Positions 3,581 to 63,251 of a DNA stretch of 64,000 bases are shown here, in pieces (position 1 is the stretch's first letter; every line of letters starts with the position of its first letter). The notes beneath the pieces were generated by a model, which saw nothing but the letters and a program-made list of their open reading frames with translations, was not told where the DNA came from and searched no databases. The position numbers and the translations under genes are program-made. Source of the DNA: Asterochloris sp. CNOR1 (taxonomy: Eukaryota; Chlorophyta; Trebouxiophyceae; Trebouxiales; Trebouxiaceae); assembly GCA_963969365.1 (NCBI GenBank), contig OZ017750.1, positions 3,038,001 through 3,102,000 on the forward strand, written 5' to 3'.

Positions 3581-6500
3581 TCAACTTGTTGCTGGTCTGA
3601 GCATGAAAGGATGAATTGCAGGCAGGCGGGCCAGATGCTGTCCTGTGACTTTTTCGGCTATTGAAACAAGCTGCTCCCTGCTGTAAGTGATGGGCCTCTG
3701 ATGGTGCTCCATTGAGCTTGTACTTTGCTCACAAACTGTCTGTGTCTGGTTCCAGATGTCTGACTGAGGGCCAATTGAAGCCGAAGCAGTGCTTGTGGCT
3801 GGGGCTCGCAAACTCAGCTGCTCTTGCAGTTGCTGCGCTCGCCTTTCAAGCCTGCATGTGCAGAAAGCAGAAGGATGCAAGACTTGCCCAGGCCGAGTGG
3901 CACAGGATATTGAGTGTCAGGTGCAGGACACTGCAGAATCTTCAAGGAGACTGAGACATGGGTAGCATGCCACAGCTTACTTTTCTGCATCCCTGTGAGA
4001 ACTGCTGGCAACAGTGGCAGCGAGGTCTGCAGCGGCGCGCAGGCCAGCTGCATCATTCTGCCTCACCAGCATGTTGACTGCGTCCAGGGGCCGGTCCCCT
4101 GCAGCACATCAGACAATCCATGAACATGCATAGTTGCCCACCTGGGATGCTGGCAAGCATTCCAGGTCGCATACACCCAGTCTGCTTGCTTGCTGCATGG
4201 CCTCAGGCTCTTTGAGCCCAGTTTGTCTGGACCAGGAGCAGGGATGCATGAGCACAGCCTCACATCAGCAGCCCTCACCTGCCAAGTAGCTGCCAGCTGC
4301 TTCAGCAAACCTACTGCCCTGCTCCTGCTCTGCAGCCTGCAGGCGGTGCAGGTCCTGCAGCAGACAGGCCACACTCTCATGTCAGGCTCAGCGCTGCAGG
4401 ACAGTCGAGGTACAAACAAGTGTTCCAAAAGACGGCACAAAAGTGGCCCCTCAAAAAAGCAACTCCTTCTGGCCATGCAGGCAGGCTGCTCTCAACCTCA
4501 GGGTGGCCCTACACAATCCAGAAGCCAGCGTCGCAGTGATACCTCACAGCAGTCATGATCAGGATGCAGGTTGCCTGAAATCAGCCATGACCAGGCAGCA
4601 GTGCTCACCTGTAGGAAGGGGTCCTGCGGCAGCAGCCTGGCGCTGCCCAGCGCCACCGCCTCGCCCAGCAGGTGGGCCCGCGCGTATGTCTGCATGGCGC
4701 CGTGCACGTCCCCGGTGCACAGCAGGTGGAGGGCTGCCAGGTGCACCTCGCCTGCACACAGGCAGTGGGCATCAGCAGCAACGCAGGCTGAGCAGACGTG
4801 CCAGAGGACCTTCACCATGAAGACTGACCACAGATTGACAGCATCTGCAGAGAGCTGCTGCCCAGGCACTGTGCACAAGGGTCTAGAGACCGCAGCTTCA
4901 TCAGCAAACAAACATGATGGCCAACAGTGCCTGACTTCAGGGAGCTTTGCGGCAACAGGCTTCCGGCAGTGCTGAGTTCAGTGTGAGCTCCCCAAGGTGG
5001 GTGCCTCCCCACCTTGCACCTCCAGTGTGGCGGCATACACCTGCACCACGGCGGCCCACACCTCCGGCCCCATGCCAGCAGCCATGCTCACAAAGTCGCC
5101 TGACAGGGCATCTGCGTCCAGCAGGGTCACAATGGCAGCGCCCACATCTCCTGCAGCAGCAGGCGGGCTTTACTGCATGACAATCAGCCTCATGCTTGCA
5201 TTCAGCAGGACCTCGATGACTGGCCCAACATCCCCATGCAGCTGCAGACGAGCTTTGCAGTGTGCCTGGCCCTTGTCTTTGTGTTCAACATGGTCTCAGT
5301 GGCCACCCCAGCGTCCCCTGCAGCAGCAGGCATCCTTTTATTGATTGAGCCTCGAGTATGCGGCAGCAAGCCTCTGTACTGTGATCTCATTGGGAGGTGC
5401 AACCTTTGTCTAGCATTTGGCCCAGCGGGGAGGGCAAGCCTGGCAGCGACACAGCTTTTGGGCGAGCGTGTCAGGGCTGCGGTCTGCCACCTGCCAGACA
5501 GTTGCGAAGATCTGGCACGCTGCTCTCCATGACATGTGCAATGCAGCAGGCTGGTCCACATTCCAAAGGGGCCGGGCCCTGCTCTGCAGCAGGGGGGGCC
5601 TGCCACACCTGCGAGGCAGATCTAGACAGCCCACAGAGGAACAGCCAAGCTTTGCAGCAGTAGGGGCCTGCCACAGCCCAAATGCAGGTCTGGCTGGCCC
5701 ACCTGCCCACAGGGAGACAGCTGCGCTCTGCTGCGCTGCCGCCTTGCCGCCTGCTGCCACCAAGCTGGCACCCCCCGCGGTCAGCCTCTGCCGCAGGGTG
5801 TCGAGCAGTGCAGCAGCCTGCAGAGGACTGCCGGCAGGCTGCGTGGCGGCTGCTGACTCGCGTGATGCTGTGGCAGAACTGTTGCCGACGTACACCTGGT
5901 GGGCATAGGCCATGCATGCTTCATAGTGGTCCTGCACTCACAGCAACAGGCTTATTTTGCAGCAGTTGCCAGGTGCTGCTGCACGGGGAGATAGCACTGG
6001 AGACGCTGGCAGTGTGAACCATGTCTCGAGCACCTCTGTGGCAGGGCACGCTGGTGTCGATGGGCTTAGGCATGGAGCAGACAGGGTGCTCCAGGGCAAG
6101 CAAGTGGAAGCTGCCAGCACGTGTGTGGACCCACAGAGGCTGCAGCAGACATTTGTGCAAATACAGGCACAACTGGCATCACCCAGCAGGCACAGCACAC
6201 ATACCAGCCTTCCCAGAAGGCTGCTTGTTTTGCTCACCTGGGCCCTAACCCCATCTGCAGTGACGATCTGCTGCGCGCCCAGGCTGGGCAGATACCGCGC
6301 AGCTGCCTTCTTCTGCGCCTTTCCCCCAGCCACAGGGGGCCTGGCAGCCCGTGCAGCAGCGTGCGACCCCTCTGCAGCTGAGTCGCGACCCTGAACAGGA
6401 GCCTGTGGCCCGCTGTTGGCGTCTGTGTCAAATGGAAGCCCAATCGGGGCCAGCAGCGTTTGCGGCCCATGTGCGGGCAAGGGCGGCAGGTCTGCCCTTT

Positions 6501-15606: not shown

Positions 15607-18600
15607 CTACTGAACTGTAAAGGACGAAAGAATGAGCTGGATTGCCTTGGCAACCTCACCAATGGCGGGACGCTTGCGGTAGTCAAACTCCAAGCAGCGC
15701 TCTGTCAAGACCTACAGCATCAGAGCTTGAGTCAGCACGGCTTTCCAATAACCTGTCAGACCCGCCACACATGCAACACCAACTGCATTTAGACATACAA
15801 GCAGCCAGCCCGGGAATGGCAAGTGCTGAAGCCAACACTTGACCGTGACCGTGACCCTTCGCACGGTCACGGTCACGTGTGATGGTGTTGCCGGGCCCCC
15901 ACAAAGCGAGCAAGGGGCAAGCAAGGAACAGCAACCCACTGAGGAAGATAAAGCTTGCAGAGGGGAGGATCTTGGTTTGAAGCAAGCAGATACAAATGCA
16001 GCCCTAAATCAGCAACCTGCTGGGCCAGAGCAGGCCGCACAGCCCACCTTGAAAGCGGGGTTTGAATTTGCAGGCAGCTCCAGAGTGCGCTTTTTTATTG
16101 TCAAGTTGTGAATGATGGTGATGCCGGCCATGCCAGCCCAGGGGCGTGTACCACTGTACATCTCCCAAAGCAGCACGCCAAAGGCCCACACGTCTGCAGC
16201 CTGCAGAGACAGCCAAGCTGTGCATGTGCGTGCTGGTGATTGTGATGGCACTTGCAGAGACAGTCAGGCTTACAGCAACAGCCAGGCTGCAAGAGCCCCA
16301 GAAGTGTGCTATGCCCAGCAGTGGAGGCAGGCAGCAAGAGCTTGAAGTCAGCTCAGGCAGAGCGCCTTGAGGACATCAGTTCCAGTGCCCATGTCTAAGC
16401 AAAAGGTCAAGTGAAGAGCACCTGATCCTTGGGCTGCAGGCTCACCTTTGTGCGCTTGCCATGCATCAGCAGCTCTGGCGCTGCGTGCGTGACTGTGCCA
16501 TAGCTCTTTGTGTGGTGAGTCTGGTGCCCACTCATGACCTTGCCGAAGCCAAAGTCTGCCACCTGCACATACAAAGCTGCTCAGAGGAGGGGGATCAGGA
16601 GAAGGCTTCACACCCCTGTTGTCAATCTGGCTGCCAGGCAGCAGATATGACCTGTTTGCCATGCTGTTCCTGAAGGGTGCACAACATGCTGTTCTGCAAA
16701 AGCAAGTGTAAGTCCGGTGGCGCTGGCACCAATGACAGCACGTGAAGGCACTGCAGGTTCTCAGGGTACGACTCTTACCTTGCAGGTGAAGCCCCTGGAG
16801 TCCTTGTTGCTGCTGCAGAGAAGCACGTTGCCACCTGCAACGCAGGCATTGGCTGAGTCTTGCTGCCAAGGCCCTGACGATTGGCAATGTAGCTGGCCTA
16901 GTGAGGGAGGGAGGGGCAAAGGGGGCCTTTGCCATGGCAGCTCTGGCACTCAGAGCAGCTCTCCTGGATAATAGGAGGGCCATGCCTCCACCAGCACAAG
17001 GATAAAAACTCCATACGGCATGGACTTGAGCCTACACTGGCATGTGCACAGGAACTCAGGTGCCGCACGGGCTATCCAGTCTGCACCAGCAAGCCCACCT
17101 GATAGGTCCCCGTGAGTGATCTCGCCGTCATGCAGGTAGCAAAGTGCTGAGGCGATTTCAGCGCCCGACCGCAGGACAGCCAGGAGGTCCAGGTTTTCAG
17201 GCTGGGGGGCCTTCCTGTTGTGGAAGAGCCCCTGGCTGACTGCATCCCCCAAAGACCCCATGTTGCAGTACTCCATGACCTGCAGCAGGTCGTTCGAATT
17301 CCTTTCAGCCATGTAAAACTGTGCAGGAGGGCGGCCATCCCCATCTTGCAGTACTCCATGACCTGCAGCAGGGGGTTTGAATTCCTTCCAGCCATGTAAA
17401 ACTGTGCAGAAGGCGGCCATCCCCATCTTGCAGCACCCATGACCTGCAGCAATGCATTCATGTAGACACAGAAAACAACAATTGGCTGCCAGCGTCTGCC
17501 AGAGAGCCAGCACTCCATGACCTGCGGGGAAGTGGAAGTCCCCTTCAGAGCTGGTTCAGAGCGGCTTTACAGGACTTCGGTGATCAAGCTACAGGTCTTG
17601 TCATCCAAGCAGTTGCCAGTGCCTGGGAGCATGGCTGCCAGCGCACCAGCAGTGCGTCACCCACAACGGCGTCCAACATCGTCCACCAGCCCACCAGCAT
17701 CAAGCAGCTGCCTCGGCTGCATACCTGAACAGACTGGTGCACAAACACGAGCTGGCCGTCACACAGCTGCTGTACTGGGCACTCAGCTGGCAGCTGGCAC
17801 GGCAAGCCTTCAGCAAGCACATGACAGCTTGCTCTGCAAGAACCCACCATCCAGGTCTCTTGAAGGCCACCATGTGCTCCTGTGTCCAGGTCATCCTCAT
17901 CATCAGACCAGGACATGGGGTCACTGCAGACCTGACCTGCGAAGAGGGGGTCCTGCGTCTGCAGGCAGGGCGAGGCATGGTCAGCAAGGCCCCTGAAGCA
18001 ATCTCAATGGTGAGCAAGGGCTGCCATGCAGAGCAGTGGAAGCAACTCTTTGCTGCCCAGACTGCTGACCGCGTGCTCAGCACCATGAAGCTGCCAAGGG
18101 GTGTAGACGAGCAGCCAGCACCAGAGGTCACCATTGACACCTGGCAGACAACCCATCAGCAGCCTTATGCAGATGTGCTGCTGTCAGCGTTTCTGCTGCC
18201 CAGGGACCTCACCCTTGCCTCCATCGTGGCGTGGCGGTACGTGTTGACGATGTTGGGATGGTTCAGCCCGGCACTGAGGTTGGCCTCCATCACCTGCTGA
18301 GCCTGATCAATGCTGACACCCTCCTGGCAGCTGGACTCTATGATCTGCAAAACAGCAGCAGTACTGTTGAGGCAAGGTGAGGCGGGTGCATGCAGCACGG
18401 TGCAGCAAGTGCTGAAGATGTAAGCTTGGCACAAGAAAGCCATAGCCAGATGCCTGCTGCAAGGTGTTGGTGAGGCAGTGTACAAGGTGAGAGGTGCACG
18501 CAGTGCAGTGCAGCAGTGCCTGGTGGTGGGCTCTGTAAGCTGGACCCAGATATTTACATCTTTGTACGCCAACAAAAGGCTGTGACCTGCAGCTGTGCCT

Positions 18601-21600
18601 GATTGTGCAGACGTGGGCACTTTCCCGTAATACAGCAGCAATGAGAGCAAGATAATCATTCTAAATGCCCAGCAGCCTGGTCTCATAGCACAGTCTGCAC
18701 CCTGCTACTGGGGCAGAATGCCACGCCCAGAGCTGCAGCATGGGCCCTAGCATGTGCCGGGGCAGGGCAAACTGCACACAACAGCAGCATACCTTTACAG
18801 CACAGACTGCGCCCTGCCACTGAGCACGGTAGACGCGCCCATAGCTGCCCTGCCCCAGCAGGGGGCCCAACTTGACTCCGCTGAGGGAGGCTTGGGAGTC
18901 AAAGGCCTCGTCAGGCATGGGCTGCTGGCATGCAGGCGGCTCAGCCCCTGCCTTGGCCAGCTGCTCCTTGTACTGCTCATGGATGGCAGCAGCTGCTGTC
19001 ATGCTGGTGCTGGAGGTCGGGCTGAGGGAGGCACTGCCTGGCGCGCAGCTGGTCGGGTGCACGGTCACAAAGCAATAGCTGCTGGGTACGTTGGAGCGGC
19101 TGCCCTGGGAGGGAATGATGCTCGGGATCCCAATGGTGGGGAAGCGCCCAGCGAAGGTGTTAGGCTGCTTGGTCCTGCAGGGTCAGAAAGAAAGTGAGAG
19201 TGCTGCACAATGCCGCCCTGACTGAGAGGGCTGCACATAAGCCAGACAGCACATTAGCAGGGGCGAGAGTCGGATGTTTTGACAGACTGCACAGCTGGAG
19301 GTTCACCATCATCAGGCGGATGTAGCCTGATGACAAAGACCCTGCCGAATGGTGCAGTCGCTGCTAGGCAGGCCCTACTACTTTTGGATGTGACACCAGA
19401 CCTGAGCGAGGCGCCCTGCGGCTGGCAGCCTCACCTGATCCTCAAAGTGACCTGCTTGACGGTGCCCCCTGGCGGGCAGAAGACGTCCACCTCCAAGTCG
19501 CTGTCAACCTTCATCGCTGCATGCTCCTCCCACACCTTCCTGGACTCCGGCGGCAGAGAGAAGAGCTCCCACACCGTGGTTCTCATGTCAGGGGTCCAAG
19601 ACAGACCTGCACAAAGCAGACAGCAGCTCCTAAACGTGGATCTGGCAGGCATCACTGACCTGCATGAGTCTGTGCCCAGGCTGGCAAAGCCGAAGTCTGC
19701 CATCTTCAGGTACCCAGTACAGTCGGCCACAAGGTTTTCAGGCTTCAGGTCCAGGGCGTGCACACTGGACAAAACTGTGTGTGGTGCGGCCGGCAGCAGC
19801 AACATGGGACGCAGGCCATGAGTGCTGCCCCAGCATGAATTGGCTGCTTCGATGAGAGTGTTCCCTGCGGTGCTACCACATTGACTGACTGGTGACAGGC
19901 CCTTGCTTCAATGAGCTGAAGGCATACCTGTGAGCTCTGTGACGGCAGAATTTGCGTAGATCACAGGCCACATCGGGCTGCTGACGTCAACAAGCATGAC
20001 GCCCTCGTCCAGCAGCCGGGGGTCGCGGGCCAGGACAAGCTGCTGCGGCCTGGCCAGCACTGCTGCAGAGGTGATCTGGAGGCACGGCAGGAGTGTCCCT
20101 CTTAAGAGGTGGGGCACAATTGAGGCTCAGCCTGCAAAACTGTATGCTGAGGCTGGGCATGAGCAGGCATGCCTGTGTGTGAAATCGGGACAGAGGTGAC
20201 GCATGTAACAGAAGTGATGCATATACAGCACTGCTGATCCCAACAGCAGCATACACTTGTCAGCTTTTCTGTCAGAAGCTGCTGGCAGGCAAGGAGCTGC
20301 GAAGCGACCCTGTCTTCCGATTGCCAGCAGCTTGACAACAGGCAACAAAGACATTGCATAGCTGCATGGAGGCGATGATGACAATCATATGGTCACCTCA
20401 TGTGATCGCCAGCTGCGCTCAATCTCACGCATTGCAAGCTCTGCAAACATGCAGAGGATGAGGCAGTCATGGGCATCAAACCTCCGAGGTTTATGGTCCA
20501 GCAGGCACCTGCAGGCAGCATGAGAAGATGGGCCGAAGGAAGCTGTCTCGAAAGAGTGTCAGTGACCCCATCAGCAGTGCAGGCAAGCTGCATGGCGAGC
20601 CCAGCAGAACATGCCTTGTTGCTGGCTGGGTGAGCACAAGCACTGGTGCTTGGCATGTGGCATGTGCAAGACCTCGTAAGCTCAGCTATGCTGAGCCAGA
20701 TTTCACGCTATGCGTGAGACGTCAGGCTGCAGCTGCTGACTCACAATGCGCCAACGCGTGCGCCATTGAAGGCCACCAGGGGAGCCCCAGTATAGCAAGC
20801 AAAGAGGCCCGACTGGACGACGCCCAAGTTTGAGTACCTGCAGGGTCGGCGGAGGCACATTGAGGCGCTGCTCATCAGCAAGGCGAGGCAAGGCATTGCC
20901 TGCAGGCAGGACTCGTGCGCACGGCTGAGCCATTCAACGTGTGGCCATGTGTGAAACGGGCACTGATGCAGCCAGAGGCGCGCATGTTCAGTGTCCCAGA
21001 ACCCACCAGGCAATAACTCTGGCCATGGCTGCTTGACCCTGACTGGCCATACTAGCCTGTCATGCCGGCAAGCAGCGGGTCTAATCTGCCTGGCCATGCG
21101 CCCACGAGCCTCGTAACACATACAACAGCTGAGACTTACTTCCAGTGCTGCCGTGCATCCTCTATCATGACGACCTGGGGGTAATCTGACGCCAGCAGGT
21201 GGCGGCAGAAGGTCTGATCCCGCACACACTTTCCTTCCATGCCATGCATGTTGTCCAGCACGGTTTCAGTGTTGTCCGAGAGGGTCACCCCCCCCACTGG
21301 CATGTCAAACACGCGACACACTACCTGCAGGCAAGGCAAGACAGTCTGCCTACAGCTTCTTGGTGGATGCGGCTTACAGGCGACTGCAGCAGCCTGCCTG
21401 CAGACTGAGCAGCATTGCTGCCAGCAGGCAGCCCCGCCAGCACCTGTCTGTGTACCTGTGTGCAGGGCTACAGCTCGGTGGTCTGTTGCAGAGGGTGCCA
21501 GCGCTACCACTCAGCATTGCTGCGGGTCCCCAGCAGAGCAGGCAGTGGGTCACACGAATTCCGGCACCGTCGCAGACCAGCAAGAGATGCCACCAGAGCC

Positions 21601-22032
21601 AGCCATGCAGCCACGGGGCAAAGCTGCTCCTTGTCCCAGCGCCCATGCACCCTGCCCTCATGTTGGGGAGCCAAAGCGGCACACTTGAATCTGCAGGCTG
21701 CTGGTCGTGCAAAGTTGCTTAGAAAGGCAGAGTCCCACTGCTGCACAGCCTTTTGGGGGGGGGGGGGGGGGGGGGGCGGTGGGGGGACCTTCCCACCAGG
21801 GCACAGTGGTAGCACTCACCTCGCTAATTGTTGCCAGCACTGGGTCCCGCGGCTTTTCCATCAGCCCCATGACGCACACAGTATCTGCCCGCAGAGTCTC
21901 CTCGTGCGGGTTAATGTCACAGCGCGACCCATTTCCGGAGGACGTGGGCGAGGCACTCCCCTCAGAGGCCTTGAGCAGGGGTGGTGTGCCAGCACCAGGC
22001 GGAGTGGACCCTGCAGAGCATCCCGTCGGCAT
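15607..22032 (-). CDS. GAF-PAS protein kinase (TKL-like, non-RD)
   Basis: Exons with checked junctions: 22032-21820, 21324-21140, 20837-20745, 20508-20397, 20075-19928, 19606-19435, 19174-18793, 18344-18213, about 17310-17080, 16834-16779, 16562-16446, 16200-16048 and 15711-15607. Exons 1-4 form a GAF domain (VVCRVFDMPVGGVTLSD; FACYTGAPLVAFNGARVGAL; FDAHDCLILCMFAELA). Exons 5-6 form a PAS domain (WPVIYANSAVTELTG). The kinase domain shows the Gly loop GQGSYGRVYRAQW with VCAVK, helix C (NHPNIVNTY), hinge VMEYCNMGSL, catalytic THGDLSGGNVLL, ADFGFGKV, an APE motif as HAAPELL, DVWAFGVLLWEM and a terminal CLEFDYRKRP. Arg of HRD is Gly, so it is a non-RD kinase, but Lys, Asp, Asn and DFG are all present. 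The likely role is light, redox or ligand sensing into phosphorylation. An earlier in-frame ATG at 22122 is an alternative start, and a short exon between 18213 and 17320 may be missing. Confidence 0.85.
15844..15877. repeat. Perfect 13-bp inverted repeat in last kinase intron
   Basis: CGTGACCGTGACC at 15844-15856 pairs exactly with 15865-15877 across an 8-nt loop. Each arm is itself two GTGACC-type units. It lies in the intron between exons 16048 and 15711, so the pre-mRNA could form a stable hairpin; the DNA is also a symmetric protein-binding candidate. Confidence 0.8.
17263..17452 (-). repeat. 82/83-bp tandem repeat spanning a kinase splice junction
   Basis: Units 17263-17345 and 17346-17427 differ at roughly six positions by eye; a third partial copy runs from 17428. 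On the minus strand each unit contains an acceptor-like tract, the code for FYMAERNSN or its variant, a CTGCTGCAG|GT junction and VMEYC. The distance from the GT of one copy to the AG of the next equals one whole unit, so splicing could remove a unit exactly. Confidence 0.85.
19660..19764 (-). pseudogene. Kinase catalytic-loop cassette nested in the PAS intron
   Basis: This 105-nt block lies in the intron between the two PAS exons (19928 and 19606), on the same strand. It has its own acceptor (TCCAG|TG) and donor (GCAG|GTCAG). In one frame it reads a Ser/Thr-kinase catalytic segment, DLKPENLVADCTGYLKMADF followed by GFASLG, of AGC/CAMK flavour and unlike the host gene's own HGDLS loop. The HRD is degraded to HALD. 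The flanking exons join perfectly without it (ELTG|LSWTP). In the phase set by the upstream exon, the cassette would reach a TGA after six codons. It is either an exon fossil from another kinase or a poison-type cassette. Confidence 0.65.
21755..21776. repeat. 22-nt poly-G run
   Basis: Uninterrupted G run followed by CGGT and six more G, within intron 1 of the GAF-PAS kinase (C-rich in the transcript). Such a tract can fold as a G-quadruplex and is prone to length error in sequencing. Confidence 0.85.
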
Positions 22033-22200
22033 TGGCAGACAGCCTGACACCTGCCAAGAGCAGCCTTCAGCAGAGGTGCGGTGCCGGGCTGAGTGGACCC
22101 TACAGAGCAAGAATGGTGGCACTCACAGGCAGCCTTAGATGTGCCAACAAGACGCCTTCAGCAGAGCTGCAATGCCAGGCTAACTAGGCCCCATGGAGCA
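21969..22200 (-). repeat. Three degenerate copies around the kinase first exon
   Basis: Blocks beginning at about 21969, 22074 and 22154 share a CCTTNAGCAG start, a GTGCC centre and a GGACC...GAGCA end. The first lies in the coding exon after the ATG at 22032. The others lie upstream and become coding only if the ATG at 22122 is used. Confidence 0.55.
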
Positions 22201-42400: not shown

Positions 42401-45400
42401 GCTACTTGTCAAACTCTCAGCAGCCAGCCTCCCACCTGAAGCTGACAGTGCAGCTTGCGCTGGGCCAGCATCTCCATTGCTAGCACCAGGACGCAGGTCA
42501 GGAGACCGTTGCGGACGAGTGCAGCCACAACCTCTGCTGCGTGCTGCTGCAGGCCGGTGGCCACCATGGTGCAGGCTGCACACAAGGGAAAGGCTCAGTG
42601 AGCTGGACAGGCCAGGAATACACAGGCAGTGGTCGCGGCTGTCACCAGATCCAGCAAGTCTGGCATATTGGCCAACCTGCAGGGCTTGACACATGTGGGG
42701 ACCCAGACCAACCTAGGCATCAACTCTTCCTCTGCTGCATCACCATCTAGAATGCAGGCGGCAACGCCGCTCACAGCAACCTAATAGCACATCTGCTCAT
42801 TGAGGTGAGGCCCCCATGTGCAGGAGTGTGAGCAGAGTGTTGCTGTGCCGCAAGGAAGAATCTGGCGGGCCTTGGGTGTACGCTGCACACCGCAGGGTGG
42901 ACTCGGACATTGACAGACAGAGATGTGGGAGATGGGGAGCAGCTTGGCTACCTCGATGCAGGCTGCACATGAAGGGAAAGGTTGGGCGACAGCCAATGAA
43001 ACAGGACAAAGCTGTCCAAGCCAGAGGAGACGCGGTGGAGTGTGCATGCACAGGCTGCCACGAGATGGGGGCAGGCTCAACTAGGCAGCAGGTCTGGCGC
43101 ATCATGCACCAGCAGCAGCAGGCATGCAGCTGCAAACGCTGGCGCCAGTGCTTGCCTGCACATGCGACCAGGCCGATCTCCTGTGCCTGCACGCCCGCCA
43201 GGCAGGCGCTCTGGCTCACGTGGCAGGCAGCGCCTCGCCAACCCTGCTGCAACATGGCAGCCGTCAGCCGCGCGACCTCCCGTTCGCGCCCATGTATGAT
43301 CATGTTCCAGGCCAGGCCTGCAGTGCGGTGAGTGACGTTGCTGATAGTGAGATGAGCACTGACACCTTGAGCAGGGCTGGGAGACGGGCTGAGTGGAGGA
43401 CAGGATCATCTTCCAGGTTAGGTTTGCATTGCAGTGAGTAGAGTCGGTGGCTGTGAACTGATCAAGGTTGAAAGGTTGGCTTTGTGTAGGACAAAATCGT
43501 CATCCAGGCCAGATCTGCAGTGAAGTGTTGGCGTTGGCCAGCCATGAGCCTTGACCCACCAAGTGGGGCCAATGTTCTGTGCCTCAAAGGGTGAAGTGCA
43601 GGAAGTGTCTTGTTTGCATGAAGTGGCTGCTGCCTAAGGGCATGCGGCAGCTGTCCCCTCTAACTTCGTCTCCATTGCACTGGGTGTTTGGGGCAAAAAG
43701 TTGCTGCCTGGATGGCTTCCCAGGGCAGCCATCAGAGCACAGAGGGGTGGCCATGACTGGCCTTCAGCAGACAACCTGTCCCAACCTCTGCAGTTTGCAA
43801 TAGGCATCGGCACCAACTGACCTCCAGCAGTCTTCACATGGCCGCTGCAGGCCTGGCGGCGCACAGCTGAGGCCACCACCACCAGCAATGCTGAGTCAGA
43901 CTCTGCCACCCAGCTGGCCAGGACCTGCAGGCACCAGGGCCATGACAGCTGAATTCTCCTGTCCGAGAAGGGATCAGCATGACAGGATTCATGCCGGGCA
44001 GTTCTGTCAAGCCTGGGCAGCAGGCGCTACATCTGGACAGTGCCAGGGCGCCGTCAAGCTCTGGCTGAGGCTGCTAGGGCGCAGGCAGGCAATGGGGCAT
44101 GCAGCCCACATGAGGTGCATGTGTGGCAAGGGCAGCTGTGCCACGTTCGCGCAGTTGCCATGTGGGCATTGTTGCTGCGATATTGATCTGTAATCAGCAC
44201 CAGCTGTCTTGCACCCACCACCTGATTTCACATACCACGTGAAGAGCCCTGGTGATCAGTCTATCAGGCAGGCAGCACTGGCTAACTTGCACCTACCACA
44301 AGTTATTTCGTTTTGCACCCCCTTTGAACAAGTTGCAGTGTGTTAATCGTGACATTGCCTTTTGTCTTTGCTGAGGCTGACGCATTCTTTACCGCCTGCT
44401 GCACTGAGAAATTGTATTGCAGCTGTTGGCATTGTATATTACGTACAGAGCCCTGGCAACCGTTCTGTCAGGCAGGCAGCACTGTCTGACATGCACCCCA
44501 CAACATTGATGGGCAGTCACCCAGCCCATAGGCAGGAAGCTGCTCACCAGTGCCAGCTTGTCGCCATGCCCCTCCTGCACAGCCTGGATCCCAACCTGCG
44601 CTGCCAGCTGCCCTGCCTGATCCAGGTATGAGTGGCGCCCCATGTAGGACACGATGTCCTTTGCGGTGTCCTCGTGCCCTGCAGGGGACGGCACCCACTT
44701 GTCAAGTCACCTGGGGAAAACCCAGCTCTGGATGCAGCACATGCAGTGTGACAGTTCCTTGCCTGTCAGGACTGGACAGCTAAGCTGCAGTGTGACAGAA
44801 GCTGCCACAGCACAGATGAGCCGGCAGCAGGACGGGGCATCCCCACACTGCTGCTGGGAATGGCACAGCATGCAAGCAGCTCTGTGGCTACTGGCAGCAG
44901 CGGCCACACTGTGCTAGTGCGCAGCACGACGCGCGCTGCCTACCTGCCTCAATAATGAGCTCAAGGGCAATGCTGGCACCACACTCGGTGTGCCCGTGAT
45001 CCACCAGCCATGCATTGGCCTGACTGCAGGTCTGAATGTGGCCTGCACTCAGCATGCTTCCATGAGCCAGAATGGCGATGCCTGAGCTGCTGTCATCAGT
45101 GCAGGCCAATATGCCGTCTCAACCACTGCTCCCAGGCAGCGCCTCAGGCAATCATGGCGCCTGGCAGAGCGCAACTGCAGCATGGAAGCACGTGCTGCCT
45201 GGCACTGCCGTTGCAGCACATGAAGCAATGCAGCTCTCAGCCTCATCATTGTCGTCACCCTGCATTGCTGCAGTCAACCCGCCTCTATCCACAAGCCTGG
45301 CTATTAGTGCAGCCGCCGCATGGTCGTCGCCCTGCCGGTGCAGCAAGATCATGCAGGTGGCAATGCCGCCGGCAAGGCCTTTTCTGGGGATTGCTCCAGC

Positions 45401-47652: not shown

Positions 47653-50483
47653 ATGAACTCTGAGGGGCCTGCAGAAGTCGAGACTGTCAAGTTCAGGCTG
47701 GGCTATGGCAAATCAGTTTATGATCTAGAGCTGCCAGTCAGTACCACTGTGGGCCAGATCAAAGCAGAGGCCTACAAGCTCATTCAGATACCCCCAGAAA
47801 TGCAGAAGCTGCTCATTGGCGGCAAGATCAAGCCTGATGATGCGACGCTCACAGCCGCTGGCGTCAAGAAGGGCATGAAACTGATGCTCATTGGCAGCAA
47901 GTAAGACAGCAACCAGTCACAGCGCCTCTGAAACCCACAAGCGTGCTGCCTGCTTCGCGATCCCCAACAAGGAGGCTTGCTAGCTTCTGGCAGCTCATGA
48001 CGCAGCACCCCTCTCCATACCTGTAGGCCCACAGACATCCTCACAGTTGCTGCTTCTCCTGAAGCGCCACAGACCGCAGCTTGGGACGCACCGCCAGCGC
48101 CAGAGCAGCCTGTGCATGAGCAGGCGGCGCACAAGAAGGCGAGCACCTGGCACCTCAAGTCTCAGTGTTGGCTTTGAAGGGGCACGTCTGGCAGCGGCTT
48201 ACCACAGGCGACTTCCTTTGGCTTGCAGGTGCCGCAGCTTTTGGCAAGAAGCCCTGCACCTGAGCACTGCTTTACGGCACAAGGGACCCTTCTTCCACAT
48301 GTGGACTGGGCACAGCATGCCTGTCTGCCTGCAGTACGGTGACCACACCAGCTGCACTGCTGTCAACCCTGTGTCCTTGCATCTGCTACCTGTGAGGGGC
48401 CTCTGCACCACCTGCAGCATGCTTCTGCGACTCTTCACCACCTGCAGCATGCTTCTGCGGCACCCCTGCAGGGGCTGCCTCCAGGTCGACAGCGCACAGA
48501 GGCAATGCAGCAACCTAGCTCCTTGTCGCGTCACCTGGAGGCGCTGCCTGCATCACTGAAGCAGCACCTGGTGTGGGATCTTCTGCAGGGTTGCCCCTCA
48601 GAGGGGTGCTCACCCTGCATCGTCATCAGTGCAGGTGTCGCTGCAAGGCTGCAACTGGGGCTGCCAGTGAGCTGGGCGCTGCCTTAGCAGCCTGAGCGCA
48701 GCCGGGGCTGCCTGCATGACAGGCAGTGCACTGGCGCCTCAGCACTGCATATGTTGCCTGCAGGATGGCTGATGCCCCACCTGTAGAGACAGCACCCTGG
48801 CTCCTGCAGGTGCTCCACATGGTCTCACAAAATGAACTCAATGATGCTGCCTGCAGTGATCCCTGCCTGACTTCTGCAGTTGCTGTCTGCATCCATCAGC
48901 GCAACATCATCCAAGACCCAACACTCCTGGCCTGCAGCAGAGCCTGCTTGGCTTCTGGAGGCGCCGCCCCAGTGTAACAAGACGATGTTGAGCTGACTCT
49001 GCCTGCAGTGATTCCCCCTGGCCTTCAGGTGCTGCCCCAGTCAAATTGAGATGGCACAAGTAACCTTGCCTCTCCCTGGCGTCTGCAGGTCCTGGACAAA
49101 GGCAAGCCTGAGGGGACAATGCCCGGCATTGCTGGCAGGCAGGTCTCCCTGCAGGAGCATGAAAACGTCATCTCTGGGCTGCTGAACTCGCGGGGGGAGA
49201 AGGTGAGAACTGGACTTGAAAGGCAGTGCACTACTGGGCCGGCTTACCATGCCAGCTGCAGGGCAGGGAGCCTGCTTCTGAAGGTAGTGCACCAAGTGGT
49301 TGTGCCTGACAGCCCAGTTGCTGTAATGTGAGGGGACTGCTTCTGAGGGTAGTGAGATGCAATTTCAAGTCCGCCTGGCCAGCTGGTTCCTCAGCAAGGC
49401 GGTGTGATCCTGCCCTGCATCGCGCTGGTACAGACAGGATACAGTGCACTGCAGGCACGCATGACCTTCAAGCCAGAGACTGAGGAGCTCTGGATTGGAT
49501 CGCCCACCACCACCCAGAAACGTGAGGCCACCCCTTGTGCTGGGCTTCCATGCAGGAGCTGCCTCATATGGCAGCTGCCTGGGCCACGCCTAGCTGCCTC
49601 ATTGTGGGCTCTGCGCTGGTTGTCTTGCTTGATGTCGATGGCTTCTCATGTCATGCCAGGGCAGCCGCATTGCAGATGCTGTGCTGAGTCCACTCTTATG
49701 CGCATGGCCACCACTACCCTTTGTGGGCGTACTGCCGCTGGACTGACATCGTGCGCACAGTGGCTGGGTCCCCTGCTGGACTGATAGCTTGCTGCTGCTT
49801 GCGGTGGCTGGGACCCACAAGGGCTGCCCCCACTGGAAGGCCAGTGTTCCAGTTGACTTGCTACTGAAGGCGGCTCCATGTTGAGGCTGCCTATGTGGCT
49901 TTGGGCTTGTGAAACAGCTGCCTGCAACGACAGGGGCTGACATGGCCTGGTGAGCCCTCCACCTGCTCAGCGTTGCATATCAGTTCGAAGATGGGGCACC
50001 TGCATTAGTCCAGCTGCTCACCGATGCAGTCCCACATGCCTCTTCTGCAGTCCAATATCGCCAGATCAGCAAAATTGACTCACATGCCATCCCAGACAAC
50101 GAGGCGTACAGCATGATCGCGCTGCACCTCGGCTCTGAAGGTGGGGAGCCTCGCATGCTCCTGTTGGCTGGACTGCCAATCTTGTGGGTCTGCCTTCTTA
50201 CATGTTGCACTTAGGGCCACATGCTGCCAGCAGCCGTGGGATGTTGCACGCTGTGAGCTTCATGCTGCACCTCGGTGCAGAAATATAATTTGTGATCTCT
50301 CAATGTCTTCACAGCAGACCTGTGCAAGTCAGCACGGTGGCCGTCACCTAGAAATTTGCCCCTCTGCTGCATGCCTTCATGCTTCCCTGTGCAGGCAGGT
50401 CAAAGCTGTGGCTCTATTGGGTGCCCTCGCAATATGTGGCCTCCATCAAAGTGAGGCTGATCGGCGTCCACGCCCTCATCTAG
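47653..50483 (+). CDS. UBFD1 homologue (ubiquitin-like domain plus UBFD1 C-terminal domain)
   Basis: Six exons in phase: 47653-47900, 48027-48138, 49089-49202, 49455-49521, 50051-50140 and 50395-50483 (TAG). Exon 1 is a ubiquitin-like fold (VKFRLGYGKSVYDLELPV ... PPEMQKLLIGGKIKPDDATL). Exon 3 starts VLDKGKPEGTMPGIAGRQ (human VLDKGKPEDVMPSVKG) and ends GLLNSRGEK. Exon 4 gives MTFKPETEELWIG, exon 6 WLYWVPSQYVASIK. The human protein binds polyubiquitin and influences NF-kappaB; here a general ubiquitin-pathway adaptor is inferred. The intron at 48139-49088 needs a GC donor (AAG|GCGAGC) and is unusually long. Alternative small exons inside it cannot be ruled out. Confidence 0.88.
48401..48460 (+). 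repeat. 30-bp direct repeat, two copies
   Basis: Units 48401-48430 and 48431-48460 differ at two positions by eye. They carry CACCACCTGCAGCATGCTTC, again with an acceptor-type TGCAG. They lie in the long GC-AG intron of the UBFD1 gene. Confidence 0.85.
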
Positions 50484-53426: not shown

Positions 53427-56400
53427 TCAGCATGGGGCCAGTTCATGTCTCTCTTTGCTGGCTGAGCAGCAGCACATCCCCACCAACTGTACCAGCAACG
53501 ATGCTGTCTGTGGTGCGACACACATCCAAAGCGCTGACACTCGCTGGGACTGCGATTGCAAAGGAGGCACGACCAGGCGCTCCATCCTCAGGGCTGCCAG
53601 CAATGTCATCTGCAGGCCACCAGCAGACTTGATGAAGTTGAAGCTCTGCAAAGTAGCGCTGACCCTGGCGAACTCACCTGTTGGTACAGCACAGGCTGCC
53701 AGGGGAGACGGCCTGAAGTCCAGGATGCGCACAGGCCACCCACTGGTGCAGAAGTACTGCCCATCACTGGTCCAGGCACAGCTCTGGCTGGGTTGGCCAT
53801 GAAGAGAAGAGGTGGGCAGTTCCCCACCACTGGAGGGGCAGAAGAGGTGGGTGACCCTGTCATCCACCAGGTCCAGCACCCCTGCAGCATCACAAGGGGA
53901 GCCTATCAGGGGCTCAGCTGGCCTGGACAGACAGGGAGATGGGCAATCCTGTGCTAGAGAAGGATGTCCATCCAGAAACTGTGCTGCCCAGACACGGTCC
54001 GCCAGAGGGCACCCCGATGTGTTGGCAGGAGCACGGCAACTGACTGGAGGCTGCCTGACAGGCAGAGGTGACCATAGACATGGAGCTTCATCCTGAGAAC
54101 TGTCTTTCTCACAGGGTGCTGAGTTTGCGCAAAGCCTGCTCATCTCACCAGATGAGCGTCAGGTATGTGCTGCCAGCTGCTCAGCTGCCCACCAACAGTC
54201 GACAAAACTGAACAGACAGGACGATGCCTGGCACCGGATGGGTCCCTCAAAACGGCCTGCCAGCTGGTCATCTCTCCACCGGAACATGAGGCAGAAGACA
54301 GTGAGAACAGAAACTGACCTGCCCACCCACACTTGAGAAGGAAGCCCAAGCGCCGCTCGTCATGAGGGTCCAGCCGCATGGCAGCCATCCTGCTGCTGGG
54401 AATGCCTGCCTGAGACACAAGGCCTGGGACCCTCTCCAGCGCTTGCCAGAGGGAGGCAGACTTCACCTGAGCATGCTGCAGGCACAGTGCACGCTCAAAG
54501 GAATTGACTGACATTTGCAGCAGGTAGTCCAGCGCTTGCCAGAAGCAGGCGCACGTCAGCAAGGCCATGCTACAGTGAGCAGGGCAGGCTGCCAAGAGTT
54601 TGACAGCTGTTCACCATGTCACAGGAGGCCCGCCTCAGTCAGTGTGCATTCAGTTGAATGGGGCACTGCAGGGCGGCAGAGCCCATGCAGCAGCTTTGCC
54701 GTCCACTTTATGTGCTCTGGGCTGGACAGAAGCCTGCTCGCCAGCCTTTCGGGTACATCTGCAGGCTGCTCACCTGATAAAACCCATTGCCTCCAAAGAC
54801 CACAGCTGAGTCCCGGCCGCCACGCACATCCCAGAGGGCAATCTGCAGACATGCACCAAGTCAACAGGTGTACAGGCTGCTGCACAAGGTGCACACCGAG
54901 AGAGACCCTGGCACCTCACACCTTTCCATTGCCCACTGCCCCAACGACTGTAAAGCCATCAGCACAGACTTCCACAGCATCGACTCTGGGAGGCCCTGGG
55001 GGTGCCAGAAAGCTCGGTGAGCAGCTGGCATCCCTGGCACAGATGGCCACCTGCATGCAAGAGGCCACCTGGGCAACAGCAGGGAGTGGGGAGACGCAGA
55101 TGTTGAGCTGCAAAGCAGCAATTGTTGGCGAAGCAAAGCATGGTGCCAGCAGGGCCTGCTGTGGGCACACTCTTGCTGCAGGGGATGTGAAGTGATTCAT
55201 GGTGTTGACAGGGAGCTGACTGTGTGCGTAGCAGTGCACTGATGTACGTCAGCAGCGCATCAATGTGCAAATACATGGTCGCTGCGCACCCCAGTGTCTG
55301 TGGCTGCTGCGAAGGCATGCCGGGCGTGGCTCGGGAAGCCAACAAGGTCTGTAGCAGCACACAGGTCTGCAACAGCCCTCCGCCCAAGCTTGAAGATCTT
55401 GTAGGGGAGGCCCTGCAGCAGCCATGGGCCCAGGGCCTGCTGTGGAGCCACTAGTGGTGCAGCAACAGGGTGAGGAGCAGCATTGGATGTCAGGTGACTG
55501 GCTGCAAACACGGCCGTGACTGCTCAAGGTCATGGCAACCCAGCTGAAGGCTTGCCTGTGTCCTGGCAAGGTTGTACAGTGACAGCAAGCCCGGGCTTGA
55601 CACGGCCACACAATTTTCATCATGGGAGTCCCAGGCGCAGAGGGTGGCTTTGTGACAGCCAAAGGCAAACAGGGGCTGCACCCCTGCAGCGCTGTCCGAC
55701 CTGCAGAGGGGCAGCATTGATGGGCCAGCAGGCTGCACGTCCCTCGAAGGCATGCAGACAGGCCCAGCCTGAATGTGCAGCTGTCCCTCTGAGTGTGCAG
55801 GTCACACTGCAGCCTGCAGTGAGAGTTCAGGTCTGCTACAGCCCACTCACGTCGGCTGACTCTCTATGTCTCTGACGTCATGGAGGGAGATCTGGGCAGG
55901 GTCCCGTGCACTGCTGGAGACCGATGCACAGGAGAGAGAGAGCGCCCCTTCACTGTCGCAGCGCAGGCTTGTGACACCGTCACCAAAGGACTGGGGTGGA
56001 TTGCTCCGTGGCGCCAACGATGGCTGCGCTGAGTGCTGCAGCCCACCGTCGACCGTCATGTGAGCCTGTAGGTGTGGCATGCATGTCAGGCACACGGCTT
56101 GACCTGCCATGGGCACACTCAGGGAGCAGCAATCAGATTTGAGACGCATACCACAGTGACTGCAGCATATGATTCCCAGGCTGCAGCCTGTAGCCTGCCG
56201 TGAAAGCTGAAGCTCTGACTGCCATGCAGCTGGACATCCAGCAGTTGCCTGCATACACACATGAAGGTCTGCTTTGAGCAGATCTGCACAGTGATGGCAC
56301 ACAACACGGGCACAGCCACACCTGATCTGTGGTTGCTGATGAGCAGCAGGGGAGCCAGTCTGGTCAGATGAGGAGGCAGGTCCAAGGAGCTCGGGCTCCC

Positions 56401-59591: not shown

Positions 59592-62500
59592 TCACGAGGC
59601 TGCACTGGCAGACTCATCCTCCTCATCATTGCTTGCTGCCACTTCCTGATCACCATCCACTTCCGTTTCATCGTGGGCAGACTTCTCTGGCTCATCGTCA
59701 AAAGCCCAGCTCTCTACAGCTCCCTCAGGCAGCTTGTCAAACATGACTGCCTGCATGTACTCCTCTGCAATTCCCTCTCCAAAGGCTGCCGCCAATACGG
59801 TCTTGGTCTTGCCGTTTTTTAGCTGCTGGTCAGCATACCGCTTGTGGGCAGCTGCAACATCCTCCATCCTTGCCTCCCTGCAGCAGGAGCCGACCAAAAT
59901 CAGCCATGGGATGGCAGCCTGCACGCAATGTCTGCAGCTCCCCTGACTGTGCACGGGTACAGCAGGAGGGCGGCCAGTCAAAGCTTCATCGTGCACACCT
60001 CCGCGAAATGTGGCACCCAGCAGCTGGATTTAGCAGAAAAGGGGCTGGCAGATTGCCAGGCTGACCACACGCAGCTCAGATTGTCTGGGACATGCAGCCT
60101 CGAGCTTTGCCTAGCGCAGGCCAGCATGCAGCCTGAGCAGACAAAGCCAAAGCAGCCTGGCCATGCATGAAGAGGCTTGCAGGGTGCAGTCACCTAGGTC
60201 GTGGGGCGCAAGACCCAAGCTCTGCCAGACAGCGGCAGAGCCCAAGCAGCCTAGGCATGCAATCCCCAAGCCTTCAGCAGGCACTGCCTGACTTTGACAT
60301 GACAAGCCAAACTCACCTGTCAGGGCCATCCAGGGGCTTGATGTGCCACGCCAGCCGCAGGTGCTGGTGCACCAACCCGATGACATAAGTGACAAAGGCC
60401 TCCACATCCCTCCCGCTCTTGGGCATCATCAGAACACACTGGTCTGAGAAGATCTCGCGGCCCCAGTCTGGCATGTTTCGATTGTTCGTCAGCTCAAACT
60501 GCTCCTGCAGGTCCCTGCACAGCAAGGCAGAGGTAAGCTCTGGTGGCCAGCTGCTGTTTGGCGCAGGAAAGCAACCTGCGCTCTGAAGCAGTGCGAGTGA
60601 GGCAGCTGTCTGCAGCGTGGCTTACCGCCGCTTGCAGACAGGGTTTGCAGCTCCCAAGACAACCAGATTATAGGGCACCCAGCACAGCAGGTAGCATGCA
60701 GCTGCTTGCGAACAGCTACCAGCAGGGTGATGATCAAGCTCATGAGGGACAGCCCGCATTCTGTGTGGCACCGCTGCCTGTTGCAGAAAGCCACTCCTTT
60801 GACCAGAGCGGTTGTCAGACAGCACTCAGGTCTGCTCTGCAGTGTTGAAGAGTGCAGCTGCACTCACGTGAGCATCTTCTCATAGAGCGGGGGCAGCTTG
60901 CGGGTCATGGAGACCGGGGAGGCATCCACACAGCAGAACACGACGGCGCCAGCCCGCCCCACCATGTCAAAGGCCACGATGGGGAGGTCCACATCCCCGC
61001 GAGGGTACATCACACAGTGGATGACCTACAGGGAGGCACTTGCATCAGGGTGCGCTCTCCCTCATGCGCTGAAGGTTTGTGTGGGGGACAGGTAAGTGCC
61101 TGGTCAAGCAGCGGCGCCAGAACTGTATGCGGAGCCTGTGTGTGTGCACAAGGCAGCGCTTGCCAGCACCAGCCTTTGAGACTGCAGCTGGCAGCCTGAA
61201 CGGTCTCAGGAGTCACACTGAAAGGCCGCCCTGGAAACGGTGCCACCTCAGGCTGCGCTATTAGGGCCATAGTGACAAGTCAGCTCCACGTCGTCATACC
61301 GGATGCTGACTCCAGGTGCGCGCTTGTACTCTCTCCAAAGCCTAAGATTGCTGACAGAGGCGGTGCCAGAAGACTGACTGGCCTTGAGCCCACTCGCTTG
61401 AAGGCTGGGATGGGAGGACAGCTGGCCGTGAGATCACATAGAAACCCGCCTGTTGCTCTTCACACAGTCATCTGTTCAAGGGCCAGCCAAGCTCGCTGCA
61501 TGCTGCCCTGCTGTATGCCGCCCCCAGAGAGCAGCTGCTGCAGCCCTGCCATTTTGTACAATTGCTAAGCGAGCTGGCAGCAGAGAGGTCCACCCCAATC
61601 AACAAACTCACCTCAAGCCTGTCCAGCCTGGCAGCCAGCTTCATTTGCGGCCTGCACCCTCAAATGCAAGGTGCTGGTCAGGTTGCGGCCCCCTGCCTGC
61701 CCTGCTGCAGGCGAAGGCAGACATAGCGCCCACCTCAAGCCCTGTCCTGCCTGGCAGCCCCCTGCAGGTGCTAAGGTTGCAGCTGAGCGCATCAGGAAGG
61801 TTTTGTCATCTTGCAAGACGGCCCACCTCCAGCCCATCCTGCCTGACAGCCAGCTCCAGGTGGAGCTTGCGGAAGACATCGCTCTGGTAGCAGCGGTTCT
61901 CCAGCAGCAGGCGCGGCCACCCCTCCTCGCCCTTCTTGGGGTCAGGCACCTCTGCGTAGCTGGTGGAGCTGTGGTCCTCAGTCATGTTGCAGGAGTCCAT
62001 ATACTTGTAGGGCTGCAGGCAGCAGAGTTGGACGGGGTCAGCTCCTGTGCACTTGACCTGGCAAGTCTTGGGGTGGGGCAGCACAGTCGACCTGACTGGG
62101 TCTACACATATGCAATTGAGCTGGCCAGGTCATGGGGCCAAGCAAACAAGGCTGCAGGCAAGGTTTGACATGGGTCAGTTCTCAATGCTTTTGAACTGCA
62201 GATTGGAAGGGCAAAAAATGGGACCCTTTTGCGTGCTTGTTGAAGGATATGCCATGGGGGCCTTCAGGCATTGCCACTCATGATATGCTGCACCCTGTAG
62301 GGTGGCGCCGCGCTAGTACACTTGCATCAGTGAGCAGAGCAGATATTCGCAGCACACTCTGCAGGGTGCAGCAGTCTTTGACTGGTCATCAATCTGCAAT
62401 CATGCCATGCAGGCACACCCAGTCAGGCAGTACCCGTCTCCTTCAGGGGCAAAAGCCTCACACTGATGCAGGATCGATGACAGCATGTGAAAGGCAAGCA

Positions 62501-63251
62501 CACCCCAGGCAGGGAGGCCCTCACCTCTGCTAGAGGGTACAGCCTCAAGTCCATGGGCAGCTGGTGGCGCCACATGCCCTCCACATGAGCCACCAGAGCA
62601 TCAATGGGCTGGCTCACGCGGTCTGCCAGGCGCCAGGAGCCCATTCCGATCACTTCTATGGCCTCCCAGTCATCAATCCCAGTCTGCAGGGGGCGACGTA
62701 CCTGTCAGCCTCCTCAGAACACGAGTCCATACCCTGTGATTGTGCAGGCCAATCATGCAGCAATGATGCAGGTGACTCAACAAGGGGCCTGTGTCAGATT
62801 AAAATCGAGGTGCCAGGTGCAGCCATCGGTGCTTGATGCAGTTGTCAGGCAGCAGCATCACATGTGCTGCAGCGCAGACCACTTACGCCGCCTGCCTGGG
62901 GTTACTGCATCTGCATGGGCTTTGCTTGCTCACCTCAGCATTGGGGCCTGCCTGGGTTTTCCGCGTCTGCATGGGCTGCTGCATAAAGCCCTCTGCAAGC
63001 CTGTCAACCATGTCCTCGTCCACAGGCTGAGCAAGGTCTAGCCAGCGGACATTTGAGTCCAGCTCCGGCTGCTCCACAACTGCCTCTGGCAAGGGGAAGG
63101 GTGCGCTCTCTGTTGCTGCTGCCTGGCACCTGACAGGCCTCTGGGCTGTAGCCTGGCATCTCAAAGGCGGCTGTACTACCTCCATTGTGAGAGATGGCTG
63201 TCGGCAACAGGCTACATGGCAGACAGCATTGGGTCGCAAGGTGGCATGCAC
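59592..63251 (-). CDS. PCYA: Phycocyanobilin:ferredoxin oxidoreductase (PcyA)
   Basis: Six exons in phase: 63251-62934, 62684-62525, 62012-61827, 61025-60868, 60514-60317 and 59877-59592. Exon 1 starts with a transit-peptide-like leader (MHATLRPNAVCHVACC..., Arg/Ala/Gln-rich; a second Met at 63185 is possible). Then come LVAHVEGMWRHQLPMDLRLY, LLENRCYQSDVFRKLHLELA, VIHCVMYPRGDVDLPIVAFD, MPDWGREIFSDQCVLMMP, and finally HKRYADQQLKNGKTKTVLAA plus AFGEGIAEEYM. The residues used by cyanobacterial PcyA, Glu of ENRCYQ, His of HLELA and Asp of VDLP, are all conserved. The enzyme reduces biliverdin IXalpha to phycocyanobilin with ferredoxin, in the plastid; in green algae the product serves in signalling and photosystem biogenesis rather than phycobilisomes. 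An acidic tail (VDGDQEVAASNDEEDESA) extends beyond the cyanobacterial end. Confidence 0.93.
61607..61860 (-). repeat. PcyA exon-3 donor repeated twice inside the intron
   Basis: The stretch spanning the true 5' splice site (61823-61860) recurs at 61727-61769 and 61607-61643. Copies 1 and 3 agree at about 30 of 37 positions; copy 2 has a one-base insertion. All keep the GAG|GTG(G/A)G donor-like core and the AGCCAGGC(A/T)GG-type block read on the minus strand. Confidence 0.75.

What the first reader, a model, noticed from the sequence alone, without database searches (positions are those of the whole stretch)
3581..63251. Recurrent tandem 'echoes' of splice junctions across unrelated genes
In at least eight independent places, a 40-100 bp stretch spanning an exon-intron boundary is repeated two or three times at 50-120 bp spacing next to the real boundary: Gemin5, the GAF-PAS kinase (twice), LENG1-like, ARM-like, UBFD1, the WD40 gene and PcyA. 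The copies range from about 93% to about 70% alike, so the process looks ongoing. Tandem duplication of an AG|GT-bearing segment is an established route of intron gain; seeing it repeatedly in 64 kb would mark a lineage with a high current rate. The shared CTGCAG acceptor core may supply the microhomology.
Basis: partly seen in the sequence, partly recalled or inferred. Interest (0 to 1): 0.72.

Follow-up and report, generated by a model that had tools for sequence, protein, structure and literature searches.

The report
Short tandem duplications crossing splice sites
In this algal genome small stretches of DNA are often copied side by side, and many of the copies straddle exon-intron borders; the copies are real, but they mostly look like dead weight inside existing introns and do not show new introns being made.

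Summary
In 344 kb (the window plus 280 kb of the same genome) 213 local direct-repeat pairs stand against 3.7 in sequence simulated from the same gene models. Thirteen window junctions (10 acceptors, 3 donors) lie inside a copy, at offsets of 68-411 bp; the WD40 and PcyA loci show the same with gaps allowed.

The interpretation mostly fails. Duplicates are about as dense in exon interiors (0.26/kb) as in introns (0.30/kb). The classic signature of intron gain by tandem duplication is seen in 1 of 747 introns, not in the window, and ankyrin homology argues against that one. A junction-blind model of duplication, selection and indels predicts about the observed total share of junction-spanning pairs, but fewer at acceptors.

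Best reading: frequent small tandem duplication in genes whose exons and introns are of similar size, so many hits cross a junction. The outer splice site stays in use; the other copy decays inside a longer intron.

Unexplained: the acceptor excess, an offset peak at 88-94 bp, and scarcity in intergenic DNA. Without RNA data or a sister species, imprecise intron gain is not excluded.

The parts
17256..17451 (-). Freshest junction case in the window: 83-bp unit, about 2.4 copies; exon start of the kinase (acceptor at 17279) plus 51 nt of intron, repeated in the 445-nt intron
   Evidence: 92% over 75 bp; one match only when the intron was searched in its genome; gene has a kinase Pfam match
18670..18848 (-). 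Kinase gene: donor at 18792 and its echo 112 bp away inside the intron
   Evidence: 70% over 67 bp
21995..22203 (-). Kinase gene: acceptor at 22010 with intronic echo (offset 89) and a neighbouring intronic pair (offset 91)
   Evidence: gapped 70% over 79 columns
5113..5338 (-).
   Evidence: gapped 67% over 108 columns
5576..5702 (-). Same gene: acceptor at 5583 and intronic echo, offset 68
   Evidence: 73% over 59 bp
1387..1841 (+). Gene with DnaJ C-terminal domain: acceptor at 1807 and intronic echo, offset 411
   Evidence: 75%; DnaJ_C Pfam match
27944..28061 (+). Donor at 27965 and intronic echo, offset 81
   Evidence: 76% over 37 bp
31667..31986 (-). Five-copy CTGCAGGCA-rich array with 29-bp core beside acceptor 31697; minisatellite-like
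38160..38300 (+). Acceptor at 38282 and intronic echo, offset 118
   Evidence: 87% over 23 bp
38733..38996 (+). Gene model with ER-lumen-receptor domain (reader: LENG1-like): acceptor at 38953 with two upstream intronic echoes, offsets 196 and 96
   Evidence: 73% and 75%; one match only when the intron was searched in its genome
40228..40342 (-).
   Evidence: 87% over 23 bp
42558..42978 (-). Same gene: acceptor at 42575 and intronic echo, offset 387
   Evidence: 84% over 25 bp
43298..43527 (-). Same gene: acceptor at 43317 with two intronic echoes, offsets 106 and 197
   Evidence: 70-78%
54380..54620 (-).
   Evidence: 75% over 63 columns, score 27 against at most 14 in 200 shuffles
61590..61900 (-). 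PcyA-like gene: donor at 61827 with two intronic echoes; one was taken by the gene finder as a probably false micro-exon (61612-61651)
   Evidence: 84% and 77%; dropping the two predicted micro-exons raises Fe_bilin_red from 116.9 to 131.5 bits
62890..62977 (-). PcyA-like gene: 32-bp exon piece and intronic copy, offset 56
   Evidence: 88%
48820..49080 (+). UBFD1 gene: weak pair at a predicted 20-nt exon, doubtful as a junction case
   Evidence: 77% over 44 columns, score 20 against at most 13 in 200 shuffles

Best explanation
Small tandem duplications, mostly of about 20-200 bp, arise often along genes of this genome (probably a trebouxiophyte green alga) without aim at splice sites. Exons (mean about 135 nt) and introns (median about 200 nt) are of the same size as the duplicated unit, so a large share of duplications cross a junction. 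Those that survive keep the original mRNA: the outer splice site stays in use, the other copy (with its spare acceptor or donor and a piece of exon) becomes part of a longer intron and decays. Purifying selection on the working exon copy keeps the pair recognisable. Shown: the duplicates, their local direct nature, the intronic place of most echoes at junctions, the near absence of in-register intron gains, and that a junction-blind model yields about the observed total of junction-spanning pairs. Inferred: that the outer site is the one used in the cell, and the DNA-level cause, most likely fill-in and end joining at staggered breaks, with slippage for the short-unit arrays.
For: 213 pairs against 3.67 simulated. 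At score >=18, 133 of 142 pairs up to 500 bp have offsets under 300; between 500 and 4000 bp there are only 14 (simulated about 3.5), and inverted repeats number 1 (15 at >=16, against 3 in one simulation). The intronic copy lies upstream or downstream of the exon copy equally often, 41 to 39. Density in introns 0.297 and exons 0.256 per kb. Exon-exon offsets are multiples of 3 in 27 of 32, intron-intron in 20 of 64, as selection on the frame predicts. Junction-spanning pairs have the second copy in an intron 43 times (A-I 30, D-I 13) and in an exon 11 times (A-E 6, D-E 5); shifted annotation gives 23.8 and 12.5. In a junction-blind forward model with constraint and indels, like for like at offsets 40-300, junction-spanning pairs make 0.28-0.36 (all predicted exons) or 0.23-0.28 (small exons removed) of the five classes counted; observed 0.33 (39 of 120) and 0.30 (42 of 140). 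Dropping echo-derived micro-exons improves Pfam scores in both genes scored: PcyA 116.9 to 131.5, Ank_2 60.8 to 78.7 bits. Two echo-bearing introns gave no second match in the genome.
Against: Acceptor-intron pairs exceed shifted placement (30 against 12.0 +- 3.6; 32 against 9.7 +- 3.0 with small exons removed) and also exceed the indel model (0.23 against 0.13-0.15; 0.20 against 0.12-0.15 with small exons removed); donor-intron pairs do not (13 against 11.8; 14 against 10.3; model 0.10-0.16 against 0.10). The model's acceptor/donor ratio is 0.89-1.42 (0.90-1.40, 0.98-1.18); observed 30:13 (p = 0.014 against 1:1, 0.16 against 1.4:1). The model also expects pairs holding a whole exon (AD-I, 0.01-0.06 with indels, 0.05-0.14 without); observed none of 120 or 140. 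Without indels it fitted exon-intron pairs badly (0.05-0.10 against 0.30); indels and their rates were my choice afterwards, so the fit is partly after the fact, and wholly exonic duplications were left out of it. Intergenic DNA is poorer in duplicates (2 within 38.4 kb; p about 0.0009 at intron density), which a blind process does not predict unless those stretches are constrained. Gene models are ab initio, without RNA.
Confidence: 0.7

Rival explanations
1. Active intron gain by tandem duplication of AG|GT-bearing segments.
For: Donor CAG|GTGAGC and acceptor CTGCAG|G share CAG|G. One intron (block C2, 3645-3736, 92 nt) has donor and acceptor contexts duplicated exactly at intron length, score 28.
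Against: 1 of 747 introns, not in the window. For that one, a later acceptor at 3998 restores the ankyrin repeat and raises Ank_2 from 60.8 to 78.7 bits, so the second copy is probably an intronic echo. Mean in-register identity of donor and acceptor contexts follows the null, the shared CAG|G included (587 introns).
Confidence: 0.07
2. Imprecise intron gain: duplication across an existing junction creates an extra intron plus a small in-frame exon, as in the potato RdRp gene (PMC4974935).
For: 22 of 747 introns have donor and acceptor contexts duplicated with a slip of up to 36 nt (score >=15; null 0.32), 13 of the 22 with slip a multiple of 3. In block C3 a 21-nt in-frame predicted exon (11648-11668) and the next exon follow copies of the same acceptor.
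Against: The gene finder accepts only in-frame chains, so the multiple-of-3 excess is partly built in. In the two genes scored with Pfam, skipping the echo exons fits the family better. No RNA evidence.
Confidence: 0.15
3. Acceptor-directed process: duplications are formed or kept preferentially at acceptors.
For: A-I 30 against D-I 13, only A-I exceeds shifted placement, and A-I exceeds the junction-blind indel model about 1.3- to 1.8-fold.
Against: Exon-intron pairs touching acceptors and donors are about equal when no margin is required (33 and 29), and upstream and downstream echoes are equal (41:39); similarity runs further into the intron at acceptors (median 19 nt) than at donors (8 nt), which may account for part of the excess.
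Confidence: 0.18
4. Encoded protein repeats (ARM, ankyrin, WD40) or unrecognised exons, not intronic echoes.
For: Exon-exon pairs with offsets that are multiples of 3 (27 of 32); ankyrin and solenoid-like proteins in the sample.
Against: Echo-bearing genes include a kinase, PcyA and a DnaJ gene, not known as tandem-repeat proteins (recalled); mixed-class offsets have little frame preference (43:40:34).
Confidence: 0.08
5. Introners or other transposable elements in introns.
For: Introners are reported mainly from fast-evolving lineages such as green algae (PMC9860276, passage read).
Against: 18 of 762 introns match anything elsewhere in the sample at E<=1e-3, and the 15 listed have matches of only 22-52 bp; two echo introns gave no second match in the 56-Mb genome (that search skips very common words).
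Confidence: 0.02
6. Chance similarity from CTGCAG-rich, biased composition.
For: CTGCAG is the acceptor core.
Against: Simulations with the same composition and splice-site weights give 3.67 pairs against 213.
Confidence: 0.01

Closest known systems
Small tandem duplications formed at staggered breaks or paired nicks (Schimmel et al. 2021, PMC8355091; abstract and introduction read)
   Same: Direct, adjacent, short units; [quoted passage not shown]
   Different: The introduction speaks of insertions under 100 bp; here offsets reach about 300 bp and most cases are old and decayed, so the break chemistry cannot be read.
[quoted passage not shown] seen only as a reference in PMC3443670; paper not held; content recalled)
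   Same: Tandem duplication inside genes, some with splice sites in the unit.
   Different: No duplication here is shown to have made an intron.
[quoted passage not shown] abstract and Results section read)
   Same: Acceptor-spanning duplications like those here are the raw material of the potato case; that paper also mentions an 83-bp duplication inside an intron that changed no gene structure.
   Different: Potato has RNA and phylogenetic support for a new intron; here the spare copy appears to be an unused part of an existing intron.
Introners (PMC9860276, two passages read)
   Same: A proposed source of rapid intron gain, found in green algae among others.
   Different: No intron family was found in the 344-kb sample.

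Membership tests
Small tandem duplication | Copies in direct orientation at short distance | tested here: met
   133 of 142 direct pairs (score >=18, offset up to 500) under 300 bp; inverted repeats 1 at >=18 and 15 at >=16
Small tandem duplication | Copies adjacent (repeat length about equal to offset) | tested here: inconclusive
   40 of 213 pairs have ungapped length >=0.8 of the offset; others are decayed or gapped, as at 5113-5338 (108 columns at offset 167)
Small tandem duplication | Breakpoints without a fixed motif | tested here: inconclusive
   Only TGCAG was tested: near ends 0.174, inside 0.225, random nearby points 0.141
[quoted passage not shown]
   1 of 747 introns, not in the window, and that one disfavoured by ankyrin homology
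[quoted passage not shown]
   No relative of this genome is held
[quoted passage not shown]
   No RNA data; indirect Pfam tests in two genes go against
Introners | Many near-identical introns at different loci | tested here: not met
   18 of 762 introns with any distant match in the sample; the 15 listed are 22-52 bp; no second match for two echo introns
Encoded protein repeats | Both copies coding, offset in frame | tested here: not met
   Fits the exon-exon class (27 of 32 multiples of 3) but not the mixed class (43:40:34)

The most novel reading that the evidence does not exclude
The lineage has an unusually active small-duplication process with a preferred unit near 91 bp that acts on transcribed DNA and spares intergenic DNA, and a fraction of the acceptor-spanning copies is used by the spliceosome as in-frame micro-exons with an extra intron, so imprecise intron gain is in progress through acceptor duplication.
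Probability: 0.12. Interest if true: 0.65.

Novelty: new member of a known kind. Interest (0 to 1): 0.3.

Why it matters
It separates two things that look alike: duplications that create introns and duplications that only lengthen them. The echoes carry intact-looking acceptors, donors and coding-like pieces, and an ab initio gene finder turned some of them into probably false micro-exons, so gene annotation in such genomes needs a check for them. The genome would also be a good system for measuring how often a duplicated splice site is tolerated, since dozens of natural cases of different ages are at hand.

Tried and rejected
The first gene-finder training failed because of an improper intergenic score and an impure coding seed (seen); both were changed. 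Circular shifting of the annotation was the first control and suggested enrichment at junctions; it moves the pairs without modelling how a duplication arises and decays, so a forward simulation was added (and like for like). Its first version, without indels, fitted exon-intron and donor-intron pairs poorly. The excess of slips that are multiples of 3 looked like evidence for intron gain until it was seen that the gene finder forces the frame. The C2 intron looked like a perfect tandem-duplication intron until the ankyrin test. For the EGY-like gene in C3 the judgement that the 21-nt exon is an echo rests on Arabidopsis sequences recalled from memory; its two models were written out but not scored. 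CTGCAG as microhomology was tested and not supported, though TGCAG is slightly commoner at duplicate ends than at random points nearby. A search for introners found none in the sample. Published work was looked for; in the listed part of those results I saw no paper on splice-junction duplicates in trebouxiophyte algae. All statistics rest on 344 kb of 56.4 Mb at places I chose (block C5 is 20 kb from the window), on ab initio gene models, and on a score cut-off of 16 unless said otherwise. Pfam was run on 9 of the 13 predicted window proteins.
Full report
What was examined. The window is bases 3,038,001-3,102,000 of contig C5 of a 56.4-Mb, 21-contig genome. I added 280 kb from the same genome and trained a gene finder on all 344 kb: about 65 genes, 807 introns, median intron 200 nt, mean exon 135 nt, donor CAG|GTGAGC, acceptor CTGCAG|G. 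Of 13 predicted window proteins nine were scanned with Pfam; seven match known families (kinase with Arf and GAF, ER lumen receptor, bilin reductase, UBFD1, DnaJ, HECT, Fic) and two (the ARM-like gene and the small gene at 30957-32426) match none. So the models are broadly right but not in every detail. Size and GC content fit published Asterochloris glomerata (56 Mb, GC 56-62% in 98% of the genome, 9 introns per gene; PMC6652019, passages read; GC of the window 58.6%); that identity is an inference.

The observation. At score >=16 there are 213 direct-repeat pairs at offsets of 15-500 bp, against 3.67 per simulated data set. The window has 50. Thirteen window junctions sit inside a copy, and gapped alignments confirm the WD40 and PcyA loci. 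The UBFD1 case is weak. Density in the window (7.8 per 10 kb) lies within the range of the other blocks (2.8-8.0).

What kind of repeats they are. They are local and direct. At score >=18 there are 40-130 pairs per 100 offsets below 160 bp and 14 in the 3500 offsets between 500 and 4000 bp (simulated about 3.5); inverted repeats are few, 1 at >=18 and 15 at >=16. Among pairs of at least 35 bp, 4 of 116 reach 90% identity (0 of 19 exon-exon, 3 of 31 intron-intron, 1 of 66 mixed), and medians are 75-77%. So copies of several ages exist and most are old. Introns are not members of a repeated family, as far as the sample and two whole-genome searches show.

Are junctions special? Pairs wholly inside introns and wholly inside exons are about equally dense, 0.297 and 0.256 per kb. 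Compared with shifted annotation, acceptor-intron pairs are in excess (30 against 12.0 +- 3.6) and donor-intron pairs are not (13 against 11.8); relabelling 223 internal exons under 60 nt as intron gives 32 against 9.7 and 14 against 10.3. Two facts speak against aim at acceptors: echoes lie upstream and downstream of the exon copy equally often (41:39), and when no margin is asked the pairs touch acceptors and donors about equally (33:29). Similarity runs further into the intron at acceptors (median 19 nt against 8). A junction-blind simulation with purifying selection and indels, compared like for like at offsets of 40-300 bp, gives a total junction-spanning share of 0.28-0.36 (0.23-0.28 with small exons removed); observed 0.33 and 0.30. 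But it gives 0.13-0.15 (0.12-0.15) for acceptor-intron pairs where 0.23 (0.20) are seen, and some whole-exon pairs (0.01-0.06) where none are seen. Without indels it fits less well. I take aim at junctions in general as not shown, with a moderate acceptor bias left open.

Is this intron gain? In the classic model an exon segment with AG|GT is duplicated and the new intron runs from one AG|GT to the other, so donor and acceptor contexts match at an offset equal to the intron length. This is met by 1 of 747 introns, not in the window. That intron (block C2, 3645-3736) lies in an ankyrin gene; skipping the two small predicted exons after it, so that splicing goes to an acceptor at 3998, restores the repeat and raises Ank_2 from 60.8 to 78.7 bits. 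The same happens in PcyA: skipping two micro-exons raises the family score from 116.9 to 131.5 bits and makes the match one stretch. With a slip of up to 36 nt allowed, 22 of 747 introns have duplicated contexts (null 0.32); some could be imprecise gains of the kind reported in potato (PMC4974935), but the gene finder's liking for coding-like echoes produces the same picture. Only RNA can tell.

Mechanism. Selection on the mRNA explains the place of the echo: junction-spanning pairs have the other copy in an intron 43 times and in an exon 11 times, where shifted annotation gives 23.8 and 12.5. In the 26 same-intron rows the intron is always longer than the offset. The DNA-level cause is inferred.

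Left over. Offsets of 88-94 bp are about two to three times as common as other 7-bp bands between 60 and 150 (30 against a mean of about 11; nearest neighbours 15 and 15), in both halves of the sample (12 against 5.5 and 18 against 6.9, though in the first half the band 81-87 has 10). Intergenic DNA holds 2 pairs in 38 kb where intron density predicts 11. I have no tested explanation for either.

Noticed in passing
whole 344-kb sample: Offsets of 88-94 bp between copies are about two to three times as frequent as other 7-bp bands between 60 and 150 (30 against a mean of about 11), in both halves of the sample.
   Followed up: partly
intergenic parts of the 344-kb sample (38.4 kb): Only 2 duplicate pairs lie wholly in intergenic DNA where intron density would give about 11; UTRs are counted as intergenic by the gene finder.
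   Followed up: partly
window 61612-61704; block C2 3737-3774 and 3956-3959; block C3 11648-11668: Echo copies of splice junctions are taken as in-frame micro-exons by an ab initio gene finder; Pfam scores improve when they are dropped in the two genes scored, PcyA and the ankyrin gene. The C3 case was not scored.
   Followed up: partly
window 31667-31986: Five-copy array with a 29-bp CTGCAGGCA-rich core next to an acceptor, like a minisatellite.
   Followed up: no
window 15607-25696: One predicted gene joins an Arf-like GTPase, a GAF domain and a protein kinase; possibly two genes merged by the gene finder.
   Followed up: no
window 13635-15029: Gene with a Fic/DOC domain.
   Followed up: no
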